Assembly: GCA_024280015.1 (NCBI GenBank)
Contig: JAJRQY010000014.1
Span: forward strand, 1-36,580
Reading direction: 5' to 3'
DNA from: Actinomycetes bacterium
GTDB taxonomy: Bacteria > Actinomycetota > Acidimicrobiia > Acidimicrobiales > SZUA-35
Length of the DNA stretch: 36,580 bases
Made by a program: the position numbers and the translations under genes. The notes beneath the pieces are model-generated. The model was not told the origin of the DNA and did no database searches. It saw nothing but the letters and a program-made list of their open reading frames with translations. This document shows positions 19,772 through 29,202 of this stretch, piece after piece (position 1 is the first letter of the stretch; every line of letters begins with the position of its first letter).

Positions 19772-20515
19772 CTAGGCGGCGCGAGCAAGTTCCAGAACTT
19801 GGTCGACGTCGAACGCTCCGAGCCAGGATTGAATCGGCTCGCCCTTGGCGTTCACCAGGAGGGCTGCTGGCTGTCCTCGAACACCGTAGTAACTCCAGGT
19901 CTCGAACGACTCATCCCAGATCATGGTCAGTGACTCAGTCCCCGTCGATTCCAAGAACTGCTCGGCCTGATCAAAACTGTCTTGGGCCCCCATACCAATG
20001 ATGCGGACTTCATCTCCGTGATCTCGAGCAAACTGCTCGACGGTCGGGCCCTCAGCCCGACACGATGGTCAATGAGGCGCCCAGAACCAGAGCAAGACGG
20101 GACGATCGCCCCCAGCAAGCTCGGTTGCGATATTCAAGGTCGCCCCTGTCTGGATATCGAGAACATCGACATCGGGAAACAAATGGTCGGGGGTTGGCAC
20201 AACCGGCCCGGCTGCCTCTTCGCCCGTCGATCCAGCAGTTGATTCAGCGCTAGCTTCTGACCCTGCAGCATCGGATCCAACGTCGCTGGATCCAGACCCG
20301 ACAGCGGAGGCTTCGGTCGAAGCAGAGTTGGGGTTGCCACCGAGCTCGGGGCTGCTTGCCCCGCTTCCACAAGCCGTTGCCAGCAAGGTAACGCCAGTAA
20401 TTAGGGCCGGCAGCTTGCCTCGGCCAACCCTCGGGACAACAAACTGGTGCGGACGGGTCCGCTCTTGAGATCGGGTACACACGGTTTCAGTCAACCGACT
20501 CGGGGCAATCATCAT
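19772..20515 (-). CDS. Candidate selenoprotein: TlpA/DsbE-like thioredoxin lipoprotein with U-P-S-C active site
   Basis: Read through one in-frame TGA (20071-20069), this is a single 247-residue protein. Residues ~34-51 form a signal peptide ending in a lipobox-like LLATAC, so it is probably a lipid-anchored extracytoplasmic protein. A Ser/Glu/Gly/Ala-rich linker follows. The C-terminal half is a TlpA/DsbE-type thioredoxin fold: PVLLWFWAPH, then TGA, then PSCRAEGPTVEQF. The TGA (position 149) stands where the first cysteine of CxxC belongs, and Cys152 is kept. The cis-proline GQPAALLV and the closing beta strand and helix are intact up to TAG 19772. A stem-loop follows the TGA. I infer selenocysteine. 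A Cys-to-stop mutation or base error is the alternative. Family role: disulfide exchange on exported proteins. It is divergent from a molybdoenzyme, and an SDR gene lies downstream. Confidence 0.78.
20043..20061 (-). promoter_or_regulatory. Putative bacterial SECIS stem-loop
   Basis: Seven bases after the in-frame TGA, GTCGGGC pairs perfectly with GCCCGAC around the loop TGAGG (7-bp stem, 5-base loop). Bacterial SECIS elements are short hairpins lying inside the coding sequence just after the UGA, with G/U in a small apical loop bound by SelB. Position, size and loop fit; binding is not shown. Confidence 0.6.
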
Positions 20516-20592: not shown

Positions 20593-22242
20593 ATGCCTAG
20601 CCAGACTCCATCCACGCCAGCACACGGCACGCCAGCACACGGCACCTCCATCTCCCCCCTGCGGGGAATCGTGACCGGAGTCCTTGCCGGGGCAACAGCT
20701 TTGTCTGTTGGCGAGCTAGCTGGCGCTCTTGCCGCCCCGCGGCCAGGGCCAGTGACTGCGGTATCGAATCGGGTGGTCGACAAGGCCCCCGTGTGGTTCG
20801 TCAATTTCGGCAAGGACATCTTCGGATTGGCGGACAAGCCTGCGTTGCTGTTGGGCACAGTCATTCTTTCCCTCGTCGCCGCGGCGGCTCTCGGCCTAGC
20901 CTCGCGGTCCAAGCCTTCAACCGGTGTTGCCGGTATCGGCTTGTTCGGACTCATCGGACTGGTTTCCATGGCAGTGGATGCCCAGTCCGGAATTTTTGCC
21001 GCCGTTCTCATCAGTGCCCTGGCCGTTGTGACCGGCATCGGCGTCCTGCTCATTCTTCAAGGACTGGCAGGGTCCAGCGCAGGCTCCGGCCTCAAGCCCG
21101 CGCTGGTCACCGGACAGTCCGCTTCGAATCAGCCGCTGGATATTCCGACCGACCCGGCTGTAGCCCGGCGATCCTTCCTTGGCTTCAGTGCAGTTGTTGG
21201 CGCTGGGTCAGTTCTTGGTGGAGTAGCTGCCAACTCCCTCCGCAGCCGAACCTCAGCCAACGAAGCCCGAGACGCAGTGGAGATCATCAAGCCGGAAGTG
21301 GCTGAAGCGGTCGAAGAGCAAGTCATCGTCGCCGCAACCAGCGATGTCGCCGCAACCCCGGGAATCACCCCAATTGTGGTGTCCGGCGAAGATTACTACC
21401 GGATCGACACGGCCCTTCTGGTTCCTCAGATCGATCCCGCGACTTGGAAACTCACGATCAAGGGGATGGTCGACAACGAACTCACCTTCACCTACGACGA
21501 ACTTCTGAAGCGGGCTACAACCGTCGAGCCCGTCACTCTTTCTTGCGTGTCCAATGAGATCGGCGGAGGCCTTGTCGGCAACGCAGTCTGGCAAGGAGTG
21601 CCGCTCACAGACTTGTTAGACGAAGCAGGAGTGCAGCCCGGCGCGACCCAGATCAGCAGCCGGTCTGTTGACGGTTGGGATTGTGGTTTCCCGACCGAAG
21701 CGGCCTATGACGGCAGGACTGCCTTGGTGGCTGTCGCCATGAACGGCGAGCCCCTTCCCATCAATCATGGGTTCCCGGTACGACTCGTTGTTAGTGGTCT
21801 CTACGGCTACATCTCTGCCACCAAATGGCTTTCAGAAATCGAACTCACCACAACAGAAGCCTTCAACGGATACTGGATCCCTCGGGGCTGGGCAAAGCAT
21901 GCACCAGTGAAAACTCAATCCCGCATTGATACTCCACGCGACTTCACCCAGATCGAAGGAACGAATCCCGTCCCTATCGCCGGTGTTGCCTGGGCTCCAA
22001 ACACTGGCATCACCAAGGTTGAGGTCCAGGTCGATGACGAGCCTTGGATGGAAGCCACCCTGGGTGAATCACTTGGTATCAACGCCTGGCGCCAATGGCT
22101 GGTGTCATGGACACCGACCCCTGGCGAACACGAGGTTCGCGTCCGCGCCACTGATGGCAGCGGGACAACCCAAACCGAGCAGCGCACCGCTGTTGCCCCG
22201 GACGGGGCATCAGGCTGGCACACCATCCGTCTCCGAGTCTGA
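20593..22242 (+). CDS. Membrane-anchored molybdopterin-dependent oxidoreductase (SUOX/MsrP-like)
   Basis: A 549-residue protein with three parts. Residues 1-160 hold several hydrophobic segments (GIVTGVLAGATALSVGELAG, ALLLGTVILSLVAAAALGLA, two more). Next is a twin-arginine-like stretch ARRSFLGFSAVVGAGSVLGG (about 191-210) that may act as internal Tat signal and anchor. Then comes a sulfite-oxidase-type Moco domain whose molybdenum-binding cysteine is Cys318 (TLSCVSNEIGG), and a C-terminal Mo-co dimerisation domain (WAPNTGITKVEVQVDDEPW). The active site would lie outside the membrane. The substrate is unknown; sulfite or S-/N-oxides are known for relatives. I chose ATG 20593; TTG 20521 is possible. 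The purine-rich AAGGGAGGGG near 20573 is a plausible but distant ribosome site. The gene is divergent from the candidate selenoprotein. Confidence 0.88.
   Translation: MPSQTPSTPAHGTPAHGTSISPLRGIVTGVLAGATALSVGELAGALAAPRPGPVTAVSNRVVDKAPVWFVNFGKDIFGLADKPALLLGTVILSLVAAAALGLASRSKPSTGVAGIGLFGLIGLVSMAVDAQSGIFAAVLISALAVVTGIGVLLILQGLAGSSAGSGLKPALVTGQSASNQPLDIPTDPAVARRSFLGFSAVVGAGSVLGGVAANSLRSRTSANEARDAVEIIKPEVAEAVEEQVIVAATSDVAATPGITPIVVSGEDYYRIDTALLVPQIDPATWKLTIKGMVDNELTFTYDELLKRATTVEPVTLSCVSNEIGGGLVGNAVWQGVPLTDLLDEAGVQPGATQISSRSVDGWDCGFPTEAAYDGRTALVAVAMNGEPLPINHGFPVRLVVSGLYGYISATKWLSEIELTTTEAFNGYWIPRGWAKHAPVKTQSRIDTPRDFTQIEGTNPVPIAGVAWAPNTGITKVEVQVDDEPWMEATLGESLGINAWRQWLVSWTPTPGEHEVRVRATDGSGTTQTEQRTAVAPDGASGWHTIRLRV
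20613..20642. repeat. 15-bp tandem duplication near the molybdoenzyme start
   Basis: CACGCCAGCACACGG occurs twice head to tail (20613-20627, 20628-20642), encoding TPAHG-TPAHG just before the first membrane segment. It keeps the frame and lies in the presumed flexible N-terminal tail. Confidence 0.85.
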
Positions 22243-25492: not shown

Positions 25493-25531
25493 TAAAGAAC
25501 TCCAGAGGCCCCCAGGGCCGAAGAGTTCGCG

Positions 25532-25605
25532 TGGAGATGAGGGGATTCGAACCCCTGGCCTCCTCGATGCGACCGAGGCGCTCTAGCCAACTGAGCTACA
25601 TCCCC
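25532..25605 (-). tRNA. tRNA-Ala (anticodon CGC)
   Basis: The minus strand folds into a complete 74-base cloverleaf. The acceptor stem GGGGATG/CATCTCC includes the G3-U70 pair that marks alanine tRNAs. D-arm GCTC...GAGC, anticodon stem CCTCG/CGAGG with loop GTCGCAT (anticodon CGC, reading GCG), and T-arm AGGGG-TTCGAAT-CCCCT follow. No 3' CCA is encoded. A tRNA-Ala next to glpR is, as I recall, common in Actinobacteria. Confidence 0.95.
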
Positions 25606-26258: not shown

Positions 26259-26807
26259 TTAATCCATCCGGCGATAGGTGCCTGAACGACCACCACTCTT
26301 CTCCCACAACGCAATCTGGCCAATGGTCATGGACTTGTCTGCCGCCTTGCACATGTCATAGATGGTCAGTGCCGCTACCGAAACGGCAGTTAGCGCCTCC
26401 ATCTCAATTCCCGTTCGCTCCACAATGTCGACCTGGCACTCGATCTCGATTGAGGTTTCTTGAATCTCGAAGTCAACACTCACTGCGCCAACCATGATCG
26501 GGTGGCAAAGTGGAATCAGCTCGCTGGTCTTCTTGGCCGCTTGGATTCCGGCTACCCGGGCTACCGCCAGCACGTCACCCTTAGGTACCCCACCCTCGGC
26601 AATGAGCTTGACCGTGCTGGCAAGCATGGTGATCTGGCCACGGGCGACCGCCCGTCGAGCAGTCAGGTCTTTTTGGGTGACGTCAACCATCCTGGCTTGG
26701 CCTTGTGAGTCCAGATGGCTCAGCGTTAGCTCTGTGTCTTCCAGCGAAGTGTCTTCCAGCGAAGTACTCGGCCGCGAGGGTGTACCGGGGTGTTCAGCTT
26801 CAGACAT
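26259..26807 (-). CDS. moaC: Cyclic pyranopterin monophosphate synthase MoaC
   Basis: With MoaA, this enzyme converts GTP through 3',8-cyclo-dihydro-GTP to cyclic pyranopterin monophosphate, the first stage of molybdenum cofactor synthesis. MoaC motifs are clear: MVDVTQKDLTARRAVARG, AGIQAAKKTSELIPLCHP and ERTGIEMEALTAVSVAALTIYDMCKA, with KSGGRSGTYRR at the end. The first ~30 residues are an acidic tail containing a 15-bp tandem duplication (LEDTS-LEDTE; 26736-26765). ATG 26807 follows GGAGG at 7 bases and lies 3 bases after the moaA stop, so the two are co-translated. Confidence 0.96.
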   Translation of the reverse strand: MSEAEHPGTPSRPSTSLEDTSLEDTELTLSHLDSQGQARMVDVTQKDLTARRAVARGQITMLASTVKLIAEGGVPKGDVLAVARVAGIQAAKKTSELIPLCHPIMVGAVSVDFEIQETSIEIECQVDIVERTGIEMEALTAVSVAALTIYDMCKAADKSMTIGQIALWEKSGGRSGTYRRMD

Positions 26808-26810
26808 CTC

Positions 26811-27851
26811 TCAGCCTCCAAGCTGGGACATCGATTTGGAGGGCCGGATGAAGTGGACTTGACCAATGGCGTGTCCAGCCCATTTCCGATCAACTTCGCC
26901 TGCAACTGCAGCGAGGAGCTCGTCATCACTCCCCCCGTTTCGCATGATGTCTCGCAGGTCCACATGATCAAGGCCAAACAAGCAGTTCCGAAGCTGACCC
27001 TCGGCCGAAAGCCTCATGCGATCACATGACTCACAGAATGGTTCGGTAACACTGGCAATGATGCCAAACTCTGACCCCGGCGAACCAGGGGAAGCGTCGC
27101 GGTACCCGAAGCGTTCAGCCGGAGAGGATCCCCGCTCCAACGGTTCGAAGTCGAAATCAGCTGCTGCTTGTTCAAGAATCTCAGCTCGAGAAACAACACG
27201 CTCCTCGGTCCACTCACCCTGAGCATCAAGCGGCATGAATTCAATAAACCGGATGGTTACGCCCTTGTCGCGGCCAAGCTGGAGGAACCGGCTGACTTCA
27301 TCGTGATTGATTCCCCGCATAAGAACGGCGTTCACCTTGACCGGGGAGAACCCCGCCTCAACTGCAGCGTCGATTCCTTCAAGCACGCGAGTGAGTTCGT
27401 CACGGCGAGTCAGTTCGAGAAAGCGCTCAGAGTCCAGGGTGTCCAGACTGACGTTCAGTCGACGCAAGCCAGCCTGGTAGAGATCATCAGCGATCAGCGC
27501 CAATGTCGCCCCATTTGTCGTCATAGAAATATCGATCGGATCTCCGGTTGCTCGGACACGAAGCTTGGACAACTTGGCAACCAGCAGCGGCAGTCGAGCT
27601 CGAATGGTTGGCTCACCGCCGGTGAGGCGAACCGAGCTAACACCGGCCCGATTAACCAGCAGGGCCGTGATCCGCTCAATCTCCTCGAAGGACAAGAGGT
27701 CGGCTCGATCGACCCAAGTCATCCCCTCTTCGGGCATGCAGTATGCACACCGAAAGTTGCAACGGTCCGTGACCGAGATTCGAAGATCGGAGTGGACTCG
27801 ATCGAACTTGTCGACGAGAACCGTTTGCTGTTCTGGCTGATCTAGCGGCAT
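26811..27851 (-). CDS. moaA: GTP 3',8-cyclase MoaA
   Basis: A radical-SAM enzyme of about 346 residues that starts molybdenum cofactor synthesis by cyclising GTP. The N-terminal [4Fe-4S] motif is C31-x3-C35-x2-C38 (CNFRCAYC). The GGEP motif (LTGGEPTIR) and the second cluster's cysteines (CESCDRMRLSAEGQLRNC) are present. The chain ends in the conserved Gly-Gly (QLGG) needed for activity in this family. I chose ATG 27851 because family members begin close to VDKFDRVHSDLRISVTDRC; a TTG at 27887 would add 12 residues. It lies between moeA/glp and moaC in one operon. Confidence 0.95.
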   Translation of the reverse strand: MPLDQPEQQTVLVDKFDRVHSDLRISVTDRCNFRCAYCMPEEGMTWVDRADLLSFEEIERITALLVNRAGVSSVRLTGGEPTIRARLPLLVAKLSKLRVRATGDPIDISMTTNGATLALIADDLYQAGLRRLNVSLDTLDSERFLELTRRDELTRVLEGIDAAVEAGFSPVKVNAVLMRGINHDEVSRFLQLGRDKGVTIRFIEFMPLDAQGEWTEERVVSRAEILEQAAADFDFEPLERGSSPAERFGYRDASPGSPGSEFGIIASVTEPFCESCDRMRLSAEGQLRNCLFGLDHVDLRDIMRNGGSDDELLAAVAGEVDRKWAGHAIGQVHFIRPSKSMSQLGG

Positions 27852-27951
27852 GAGCTCAAACCTGAGTTCGGGTGGATGGTCAGTCAACGAAGGAGCATTC
27901 GGTGAAGAATGCAGTCATTGCTACCCAGAACCGTAGCTCCGTAATACCAGA

Positions 27952-29202
27952 TCAATCCAACAGCATGACTCGAACCCGCCCGCCGGGTTCGATTCCGTCA
28001 CCATCAGGAACAACAGCAAGCCCGTTTGCTCTCGCCATTGCGGTGAGTTGATGCGAACCTTGCCCGCCAGCAGAGCGCGCGTTCCACGCTCCTTCTGAGT
28101 CTTGATCCACCACCACTCGCATGAAGTGCGTCTTGCCATCACCATGGCGACTCATTCGGTCATCGCTAACCGCCCAGATTGCCGTTCGTTCCGTTTGCTT
28201 GCGTCCCATCATCTTCAATAATGCGGGCCGGGCAAAGAGCTCGAAGCTAACCATCGAACTCACCGGATTGCCGGGTAGTCCGAAGATTGGTGTGTCCATC
28301 AGAAGGCCGAAAGCCAAAGGCTTTGCCGGCTTGATTGCAACCTGCATCCAATTGAGATCACCAAGTCGAGCAAGCACTCGCTTGACAAAATCGAAGTCAC
28401 CCATGCTGACTCCGCCCGAGGTGACAAGCGCATCACAGGGATCATCAGCATCTGGGCCGACAGCCTTGCGAAGTGCCGCTTCAATCAATTCCTCGTTGTC
28501 GGGCAAGGATCCAAGGTCAATGGGGATACAGCCCGACTCTGCCACCAACGCCAACAAGGTTGGGCGATTCGAGTCGCGAATCTGTCCCGGCTGCAGTGGA
28601 GCCGGACCAGTAACCAGCTCATCACCAGTTGAGAAGACCCCGACCCTGGGGCGCCGCACAACAACGACCTGTCCATAGCCGACGCTGGCCAAGACCCCGA
28701 GATGGGCCGGTGACAAAACCGCACCAGGCGACAGCACTTCGACACCGGCCCCGACATCGTCTCCCGCGGGACGAATATGATTGCCGACGACGACTTCAGC
28801 CAGTAGATCGATGCTGAGGGCATCCGATATTGATTCCTCAGAACCCGAGGACGATCGAGTTAGTTCAACCATGATGACAGCATCAGCACCCTCGGGTATT
28901 GGCGCACCCGTCATGATGCGCATGACCTCACCAGCAAGCAAAGGCCGGGTAGCTACGGCCCCAGCAGCAATTGTTTCTGCCACCGGCAGAGTTCGAGGAG
29001 CACCCTCGGTTGCCCCAACCGAATCAGCAGCACGCAGGGCAAATCCGTCCATGGCCGTATTGGCAAATGGAGGGATTGCTTCCCGGGCGACAACGGCTTC
29101 AGCCAGCACCAGACCAAGGGCGTCTTGCAGACGAACTGTTGCCGTCGGTAAGACCTTGATGTCGCCGTGAACGCGGGCTTGGGCGTCAGCCAGAGGAATC
29201 AT
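27952..29202 (-). CDS. moeA: Molybdopterin molybdotransferase MoeA / gephyrin-like Glp
   Basis: This 416-residue protein has the four-domain MoeA layout: N-terminal PLADAQARV and PPFANTAMDGFALRA, IMTGAPIPEGADAVI, the MoCF-type core VFSTGDELV, SGGVSMGDFDFVK and FGLPGNPVSSMVSFELF, then the C-terminal beta-barrel. MoeA inserts molybdate into adenylylated molybdopterin. In Actinobacteria the MoeA homologue beside galU and glpR is the gephyrin-like protein Glp, which binds FtsZ and the membrane receptor GlpR. Catalytic residues appear kept, so both roles are possible. ATG 29202 lies 50 bases after the galU stop, in the same operon. Confidence 0.93.
   Translation of the reverse strand: MIPLADAQARVHGDIKVLPTATVRLQDALGLVLAEAVVAREAIPPFANTAMDGFALRAADSVGATEGAPRTLPVAETIAAGAVATRPLLAGEVMRIMTGAPIPEGADAVIMVELTRSSSGSEESISDALSIDLLAEVVVGNHIRPAGDDVGAGVEVLSPGAVLSPAHLGVLASVGYGQVVVVRRPRVGVFSTGDELVTGPAPLQPGQIRDSNRPTLLALVAESGCIPIDLGSLPDNEELIEAALRKAVGPDADDPCDALVTSGGVSMGDFDFVKRVLARLGDLNWMQVAIKPAKPLAFGLLMDTPIFGLPGNPVSSMVSFELFARPALLKMMGRKQTERTAIWAVSDDRMSRHGDGKTHFMRVVVDQDSEGAWNARSAGGQGSHQLTAMARANGLAVVPDGDGIEPGGRVRVMLLD

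What the first reader, a model, noticed from the sequence alone, without database searches (positions are those of the whole stretch)
19772..20515. Candidate selenocysteine in an exported TlpA/DsbE-like lipoprotein (U-P-S-C active site)
Seen: one in-frame TGA replaces the first Cys of the CxxC motif in WFWAPH-(TGA)-PSC. Sequence on both sides is a normal TlpA-type thioredoxin fold with the cis-Pro motif intact, ending at a proper stop 99 codons later. Known: Sec replaces the attacking Cys in several redox families. Inference: a recoded UGA in a surface-anchored disulfide enzyme. Automatic callers would split it into a 148-residue lipoprotein and an unrelated 73-residue ORF, hiding it. No selA, selB, selD or tRNA-Sec lies in the window, so host capacity is untested.
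Basis: partly seen in the sequence, partly recalled or inferred. Interest (0 to 1): 0.92.

Follow-up and report, generated by a model that had tools for sequence, protein, structure and literature searches.

The report
Selenocysteine thioredoxin-like lipoprotein, conserved UGA
A bacterial gene that looks broken by a stop codon is very probably read through with selenocysteine there, in an exported thioredoxin-like enzyme: a well-supported new case of a known kind of selenoprotein.

Summary
One in-frame TGA (20071-20069) sits where the first Cys of CxxC belongs, in a TlpA/ResA/DsbE-type thioredoxin domain behind a lipoprotein-like N-terminus. The same genome has tRNA-Sec(UCA), SelA, SelB and SelD. 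The TGA is at one column in 30 of 30 aligned loci. A hairpin 34-35 nt after it keeps its five core pairs in 148 of 150 cells, with compensatory changes (few independent events), and its GAG, CAG and GCT codons never vary synonymously. Of 65 genomes with a listed match, 54 carry TGA in the best match and all 54 have a SelA match; of the 11 without TGA, 9 have none. TGA is an ordinary stop elsewhere (13 of 25 window ORFs). So: a genuine selenoprotein gene by computation, unproven by chemistry. It is not a new kind: UxxC Thioredoxin_8/TlpA-type selenoproteins are already catalogued. Added here: an Acidimicrobiales family of them, eight selenoprotein candidates in one genome, and a conserved divergent pairing with a molybdenum oxidoreductase (18 of 20 flanks fetched), whose meaning is untested.

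The parts
19772..20515 (-). Sec-containing TlpA/ResA/DsbE-like lipoprotein gene, 247 aa with U149, stop TAG
   Evidence: start codon uncertain
20069..20071 (-). in-frame TGA read as selenocysteine (U149 of U-P-S-C)
   Evidence: TGA at the same column in 30 of 30 loci
20024..20040 (-). SECIS-like hairpin UCGAGCA-GUU-UGCUCGA, apical loop 34-35 nt after the TGA
   Evidence: synonymous constraint
20043..20061 (-). first hairpin directly before the SECIS-like hairpin, strong in the window, not conserved as one set of pairs (63.3% of cells)
19775..20170 (-). thioredoxin-like domain (about residues 116-247), Sec149 and Cys152, Pro216 in the cis-Pro position
   Evidence: AlphaFold2 model, blocks of mean pLDDT 92-98 from residue 111 on; Foldseek and VIA matches to DsbF, CcmG, ResA
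20593..22242 (+). divergent neighbour: Oxidored_molyb protein, sulfite-dehydrogenase-like; beside the Sec gene in 18 of 20 relatives whose flanks were fetched

Best explanation
The TGA at 20071-20069 (minus strand) is decoded as selenocysteine by the host's SelA/SelB/SelD/tRNA-Sec system, directed by a hairpin 34-35 nt downstream. The product is an exported lipoprotein with a TlpA/ResA/DsbE-type thioredoxin domain whose catalytic pair is Sec149-Pro-Ser-Cys152. Shown by computation: machinery in the genome, conserved UGA, conserved RNA hairpin, Cys at the same place in the homologues read from genomes without a SelA match, thioredoxin fold. Inferred: Sec149 is the exposed attacking residue, Cys152 resolves the mixed selenenyl-sulfide, and the protein exchanges disulfides with exported proteins. 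Direction is open (oxidase, as mycobacterial DsbE/DsbF are held to be, or reductase, as ResA/CcmG; both recalled), and so is the partner; the divergent molybdenum oxidoreductase is my leading candidate.
For: tRNA-Sec with UCA anticodon; SelA, SelB, SelD in the same assembly. TGA at one column in 30 of 30 loci, with purifying selection downstream (median pN/pS 0.417 after, 0.362 for the 40 columns before). Hairpin: five core pairs hold in 148 of 150 cells, three pairs with changes on both sides; Glu GAG 29/29, Gln CAG 28/28, Ala GCT 29/29 in the hairpin, while other conserved Ala, Gly and Val columns use several codons. Loop, spacing and, in the window, energy (-8.4 kcal/mol alone) fit the published bacterial SECIS model (PMC13188914 section 5). 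54 of 54 TGA genomes have a SelA match; 9 of 11 non-TGA genomes have none. Cys at the UxxC position in 10 of 10 non-TGA homologues read, 8 of them from seven genomes without a SelA match. Fold: best PDB match 3ios (DsbF), Z 19.2, rmsd 2.1, 132 aligned.
Against: No protein or selenium chemistry. The compensatory changes are few events: one sequence (L035) supplies two of the three pairs, and eight of the nine changed loci of the third pair come from one genus, g10. Over 66 nt the window fold is only modestly better than shuffles (z -1.74, 13 of 200 as good), though over 51 nt z is -3.77 (0 of 200). The bare 17-nt hairpin reaches the published -7.5 kcal/mol in only 15 of 30 loci, and in 25 of 30 with two more bases on each side. 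Two genomes with SelA, G056 and G065, have no TGA in their best match. The same-genus relative G001 lacks a close orthologue (best match 65 bits). Relatives are not independent, so the Fisher p (1.7e-9) overstates.
Confidence: 0.96

Rival explanations
1. A pseudogene or sequencing error: a Cys codon mutated or misread to TGA.
For: One base separates TGT/TGC from TGA; a mechanical caller sees a 148-residue ORF.
Against: TGA at the same column in 30 of 30 loci from 30 genomes, coding constraint downstream, and a conserved hairpin.
Confidence: 0.01
2. Genome-wide reassignment of UGA to an amino acid (as in codes 4 or 25).
For: UGA lies in frame in several genes of this genome.
Against: TGA ends 13 of 25 window ORFs that I picked as likely genes and ends this same gene in 17 of 30 loci; in the eight candidates read, the single in-frame TGA sits at a Cys-like redox position.
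Confidence: 0.01
3. UGA is a regulated stop: the 148-residue truncated lipoprotein is itself a product, full-length protein being made only when selenium is plentiful.
For: Sec decoding competes with termination in general (established knowledge, recalled).
Against: The truncation lacks most of the thioredoxin domain, and the long N-terminal linker is modelled with low confidence (block means 48-64 for residues 1-100). Conservation of the linker was not measured: alignment A2 holds most rows only from 55 residues before the Sec.
Confidence: 0.08
4. SelB or a near-cognate tRNA inserts Cys or Trp at the UGA.
For: Such misinsertion is known for some selenoprotein systems (recalled).
Against: Full Sec pathway, including a SelD that itself carries an in-frame TGA; in the homologues read from genomes without a SelA match the position is encoded as Cys directly.
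Confidence: 0.02

Closest known systems
Thiol-disulfide isomerase-like selenoprotein, UxxC (pfam13905 / cd02966)
   Same: Same Pfam family as the best match here (PF13905), same UxxC motif, single Sec (PMC9312934 table, passages; PMC13188914 Table 1).
   Different: I could not compare sequences with the listed representatives, nor did I open the reference they are cited to. Here: Acidimicrobiales, a lipobox-like N-terminus and a conserved molybdenum-enzyme neighbour.
Mycobacterial DsbF (3ios) and DsbE/MPT53 (1lu4)
   Same: Best two sequence matches and best two Foldseek matches among solved structures; thioredoxin-like enzymes with W-F-W-x-P-W-C-P-x-C.
   Different: Cys in place of Sec; 24-27% identity. 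The NCBIfam DsbE cut-off is not reached.
ResA / CcmG (DsbE) / TlpA
   Same: Same fold, Z 18.0 to E. coli CcmG and to ResA.
   Different: Cys enzymes; their cytochrome c maturation roles are recalled. No such genes were recognised among the 10 window proteins scanned.
UGC-containing TlpA disulfide reductase family selenoprotein
   Same: TlpA-type with Sec; PMC13188914 Table 1. A candidate with SWUGC occurs elsewhere in this genome (C94).
   Different: Motif UGC rather than UxxC.

Membership tests
Bacterial selenoproteins | in-frame UGA at a redox-active position aligned with Cys in homologues | tested here: met
   TGA in 30 of 30 loci; Cys in 10 of 10 non-TGA homologues read
Bacterial selenoproteins | SECIS: apical loop 16-37 nt after UGA, 3-9 nt loop with G in its first two positions, 4-16 bp stem, MFE at or below -7.5 | tested here: met
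   window: 34-35 nt, loop GUU or AGUUU, 6-7 bp, -8.4 kcal/mol for the lone 17-nt hairpin. Of 30 loci 15 reach -7.5 with 17 nt and 25 with 21 nt. Criteria: PMC13188914
Bacterial selenoproteins | tRNA-Sec, SelA, SelB, SelD in the genome | tested here: met
Bacterial selenoproteins | selenium present in the protein | not testable with these tools
   needs mass spectrometry or 75Se labelling
Thioredoxin_8 / TlpA-type thioredoxin-like family | Pfam score above the gathering cut-off and thioredoxin fold with the cis-Pro position filled | tested here: met
   PF13905 33.4 bits over 27; fold; Pro216 invariant; its cis geometry was not measured
DsbE (TIGR00385) | curated NCBIfam cut-off 123.15 bits | tested here: not met
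   46.6 bits; so DsbE-like, not filed as DsbE
Exported lipoproteins | signal peptide with lipobox Cys | tested here: inconclusive
   pattern found in 29 of 30 loci, pattern recalled; no signal-peptide predictor was run and the start codon is uncertain
Published UxxC thiol-disulfide isomerase-like selenoprotein family | sequence relationship to the listed representatives | not tested
   representative sequences were not fetched; same domain and motif only

The most novel reading that the evidence does not exclude
The Sec lipoprotein is a dedicated redox partner of the divergently encoded molybdenum (sulfite-dehydrogenase-like) oxidoreductase, so that Acidimicrobiales run a selenium-plus-molybdenum redox pair outside the cytoplasm, within a selenoprotein-rich lineage of actinobacteria that carries several exported Sec-TlpA paralogues.
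Probability: 0.2. Interest if true: 0.65.

Novelty: new member of a known kind. Interest (0 to 1): 0.42.

Why it matters
A conserved family of exported actinobacterial thioredoxin-like proteins is hidden from callers that stop at UGA; the shared hairpin and the protein profile give a way to find them. It suggests Acidimicrobiales as a selenoprotein-rich group: one genome has eight candidates, against the six-or-more definition of PMC5029168, which names Deltaproteobacteria, Clostridia and Synergistetes (passages). The conserved pairing with a molybdenum enzyme gives a testable partner.

Tried and rejected
Reading the plus strand of the given coordinates: no such protein. My first extraction of relatives ignored strand and gave nonsense for minus-strand loci; one search replaced it and nothing is used. 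The motif pattern TGGN9TGAN6TGY in the own genome gave 197 matches against 79 for the pattern read backwards, too loose to name selenoproteins. The first hairpin (20043-20061) was considered as the SECIS and set aside: 63.3% of its cells pair across the 30 loci. Over both helices together the percentage of paired cells was reached by 20 of 500 shuffles and the number of further pair types by 157 of 500; cells with both-side changes and the covariation score by 0 of 500. The covariance model R1 is family-specific: it scores the Sec paralogues of C165 and C55 (28 bits) no better than some Cys homologues (up to 31.9 bits), and it matched 57 of 99 genomes, four of them without a SelA match (G015, G049, G053, G081) at 23.5-31.9 bits; every listed match of 40 bits or more lies in a genome with a SelA match. 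So R1 does not tell Sec from Cys outside this family. The deep-Sep paper held none of six search terms (find only). Searches for print on Acidimicrobiia, Acidimicrobiales or Actinomycetota selenoproteins and on Sec TlpA/DsbF; no listing showed a report of this gene, but most subscription papers are not held. A 2006 survey (PMC1794560, passages) counted 12 selenoprotein families and 19 selenoproteins in Actinobacteria, 12 of them in Symbiobacterium.

Full report
What is there. The gene runs on the minus strand from 20515 to 19772. Read with TGA as a residue it gives 247 amino acids with a single TGA, residue 149, in WFWAPH-U-PSC, and ends at TAG. Read on plus the coordinates give no such protein. 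The mechanical ORF stops at 148 residues. The read-through protein passes the Pfam gathering score for Thioredoxin_8 (33.4 over 27), AhpC-TSA, Thioredoxin and Redoxin. NCBIfam gives DsbE as best family but far below its cut-off (46.6 of 123.15 bits).

Host capacity. The window lies in an assembly of 4.80 Mb in 175 contigs. It has a tRNA-Sec scoring 66.4 bits over a cut-off of 47, which ARAGORN reads with anticodon UCA; SelA, 419 bits; SelB, 271 bits, whose product carries a SelB winged-helix domain; and SelD, 375 bits with an in-frame TGA, in HGAGUGC. The selA and selB frames overlap by four bases on contig C15. All four exceed their curated cut-offs. Controls: weak matches occur in 14 of 14 control genomes for tRNA-Sec, SelB and SelD and in 4 for SelA; over the cut-off they occur in 5, 2, 2 and 1. 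So only the over-cut-off hits count.

Relatives. A search of 99 genomes with the protein matched all 99, many only as distant TlpA-type relatives. I aligned the 30 best loci, the window's included. TGA stands at one column in 30 of 30. One locus, L035, has a second TGA upstream, before its likely start. Downstream of the TGA the sequence is under purifying selection: median pN/pS 0.417 against 0.362 for the 40 columns upstream, highest downstream value 0.598, with synonymous sites near saturation. Of the 39 genomes of the window's family, 31 have a match at E 1e-30 or better, and in all 31 the best match carries TGA; the same-genus genome G001 is among the eight without such a match.

Sec or Cys by genome. 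One search lists matches for 65 genomes before its table is cut. The best match carries a TGA in 54, and all 54 have a SelA match; in two of these, G025 and G035, it is below the curated cut-off. The other 11 have no stop; 9 of these have no SelA match and 2, G056 and G065, do. I checked by reading that the TGA is at the UxxC position in 33 loci (the 30, and L086, L087, L092); for the others I rely on the tool's stop count. Eleven of the non-TGA stretches were fetched. For L090 no homologue was recovered. In the other ten the position is Cys, for example WSFAPHCGTC and WFWAPWCTSC: eight loci from seven genomes without a SelA match, and two from G056, which has one. The Fisher p of 1.7e-9 ignores shared ancestry.

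The RNA element. After the TGA the 30 loci share a hairpin, in the window UCGAGCA-GUU-UGCUCGA at 20040-20024, with the loop starting 34-35 nt after the UGA. On alignment A1 its five core pairs hold in 148 of 150 cells, and three have changes on both sides: C-G to U-A in nine loci (eight of them from genus g10), A-U to C-G and G-C to A-U in one, L035. In the longer seven-pair helix 91.4% of cells pair, while the preceding hairpin pairs in 63.3%. Within the hairpin the codons are fixed: Glu GAG 29 of 29, Gln CAG 28 of 28, Ala GCT 29 of 29, whereas an invariant Ala later in the protein uses GCC 19, GCT 5, GCG 4 and GCA 2 times. The 51-nt window fold, with both hairpins, has energy -25.0, z -3.77, 0 of 200 shuffles as good; over 66 nt z is -1.74, with 13 of 200. 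The lone window hairpin has -8.4 kcal/mol; across the loci 15 of 30 reach -7.5 with 17 nt and 25 of 30 with 21 nt. Loop, spacing and, in the window, energy fit the published bacterial SECIS model (PMC13188914, section 5 read whole). Both-side changes are few independent events, so I give the codon constraint more weight.

Structure and likely chemistry. AlphaFold2 on 29 aligned proteins gives a confident thioredoxin domain (blocks of mean pLDDT 92-98 from residue 111 on) after an N-terminal stretch of low confidence. Best solved matches are DsbF (3ios; Z 19.2, rmsd 2.1, 132 aligned), then E. coli CcmG, 1lu4 and ResA at Z 18.0; rows within 1 Z are tied. Sequence gives 3ios and 1lu4 first. The Sec column (read as Cys), Cys152 and Pro216 are invariant. 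From established knowledge of this fold, Sec149 should attack and Cys152 resolve. Whether it oxidises or reduces its targets cannot be told from sequence. The genome holds one DsbD_TM/CcdA-like match, which could supply reductant.

Neighbourhood. Divergent from it lies a protein with an Oxidored_molyb domain (149.8 bits), closest to SorA/SoxC sulfite dehydrogenase models but far below their cut-offs (134.8 of 600, 118.8 of 420). It lies beside the Sec gene, divergent, with 141-725 bases between the matched stretches, in 18 of the 20 relatives whose flanks I fetched (20 of the 29 other loci); L123 and L124 lack it. Genes of molybdenum cofactor synthesis, moaC, moaA and moeA, lie further along the window. 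Conserved adjacency is a lead, not proof of partnership.

Lineage. Three genomes of the same family have contigs whose lengths equal those of named records: Acidimicrobiales MAGs JAHDCV010000001.1, JAHDBV010000014.1 and JAHEJM010000001.1. The window is therefore inferred to be from Acidimicrobiales.

Other selenoprotein candidates of this genome. Among 14 Redoxin-family matches in the genome five carry one TGA. With the window gene, the C55 protein (neither of which that list shows) and SelD this makes eight: SelD, window, C165 (WFWAPWUPTC), C55 (WFWAPWUATC), C32 (TPGUT), C170 (HLHULPC), C94 (SWUGC), C21 (GDWUPYC). Only the window gene was tested for SECIS conservation. The C165 and C55 genes show a stem with a GGUC loop about 26 nt after the UGA by eye; the minimum-energy fold displays it for C165 but not for C55. 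Six or more selenoproteins is the 'selenoprotein-rich' definition of PMC5029168 (passages).

Compared with what is known. PMC13188914 Table 1 (section 7, parts 1 and 2 of 3 read) covers 119 families or subfamilies, among them a UxxC thiol-disulfide isomerase-like protein (cd02966), a UxxC Redoxin family protein and a UGC TlpA protein; PMC9312934 (passages) gives the first as pfam13905, this protein's best Pfam family. The window gene is therefore a new member of a known kind. Verdict: selenocysteine at 149, 0.96; molybdenum-enzyme partnership, 0.2.

Noticed in passing
G000 contigs C58, C165, C55, C32, C170, C94, C21 (L017, L086, L087, L097, L102, L104, L105): Seven further selenoprotein candidates in the same genome: SelD and six thioredoxin-like or peroxiredoxin-like proteins, each with one in-frame TGA at a Cys-like position.
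   Followed up: partly
window 20593-22242 and L118-L122, L125-L137: An Oxidored_molyb protein lies beside and divergent from the Sec gene in 18 of 20 relatives whose flanks were fetched.
   Followed up: partly
window 26259-29202: moaC, moaA and moeA on the minus strand: molybdenum cofactor synthesis near a molybdenum enzyme.
   Followed up: no
G008:C76, G017:C343, G026:C76 and others: Some relatives have TlpA-like homologues with two in-frame TGA codons, possibly two-Sec proteins.
   Followed up: no
L085 and L093 (genome G056): A genome with SelA (contig length equal to a Microthrixaceae record) has Cys in both homologues read: a Sec-to-Cys change or ancestral Cys.
   Followed up: no
G089:C64:21640-22523: Two partial matches side by side, with equal R1 scores 221 bases apart: perhaps an assembly duplication or a tandem copy of the Sec domain.
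   Followed up: no
window 25531-25605: tRNA-Ala (CGC), minus strand; the only tRNA that ARAGORN finds in the window.
   Followed up: no
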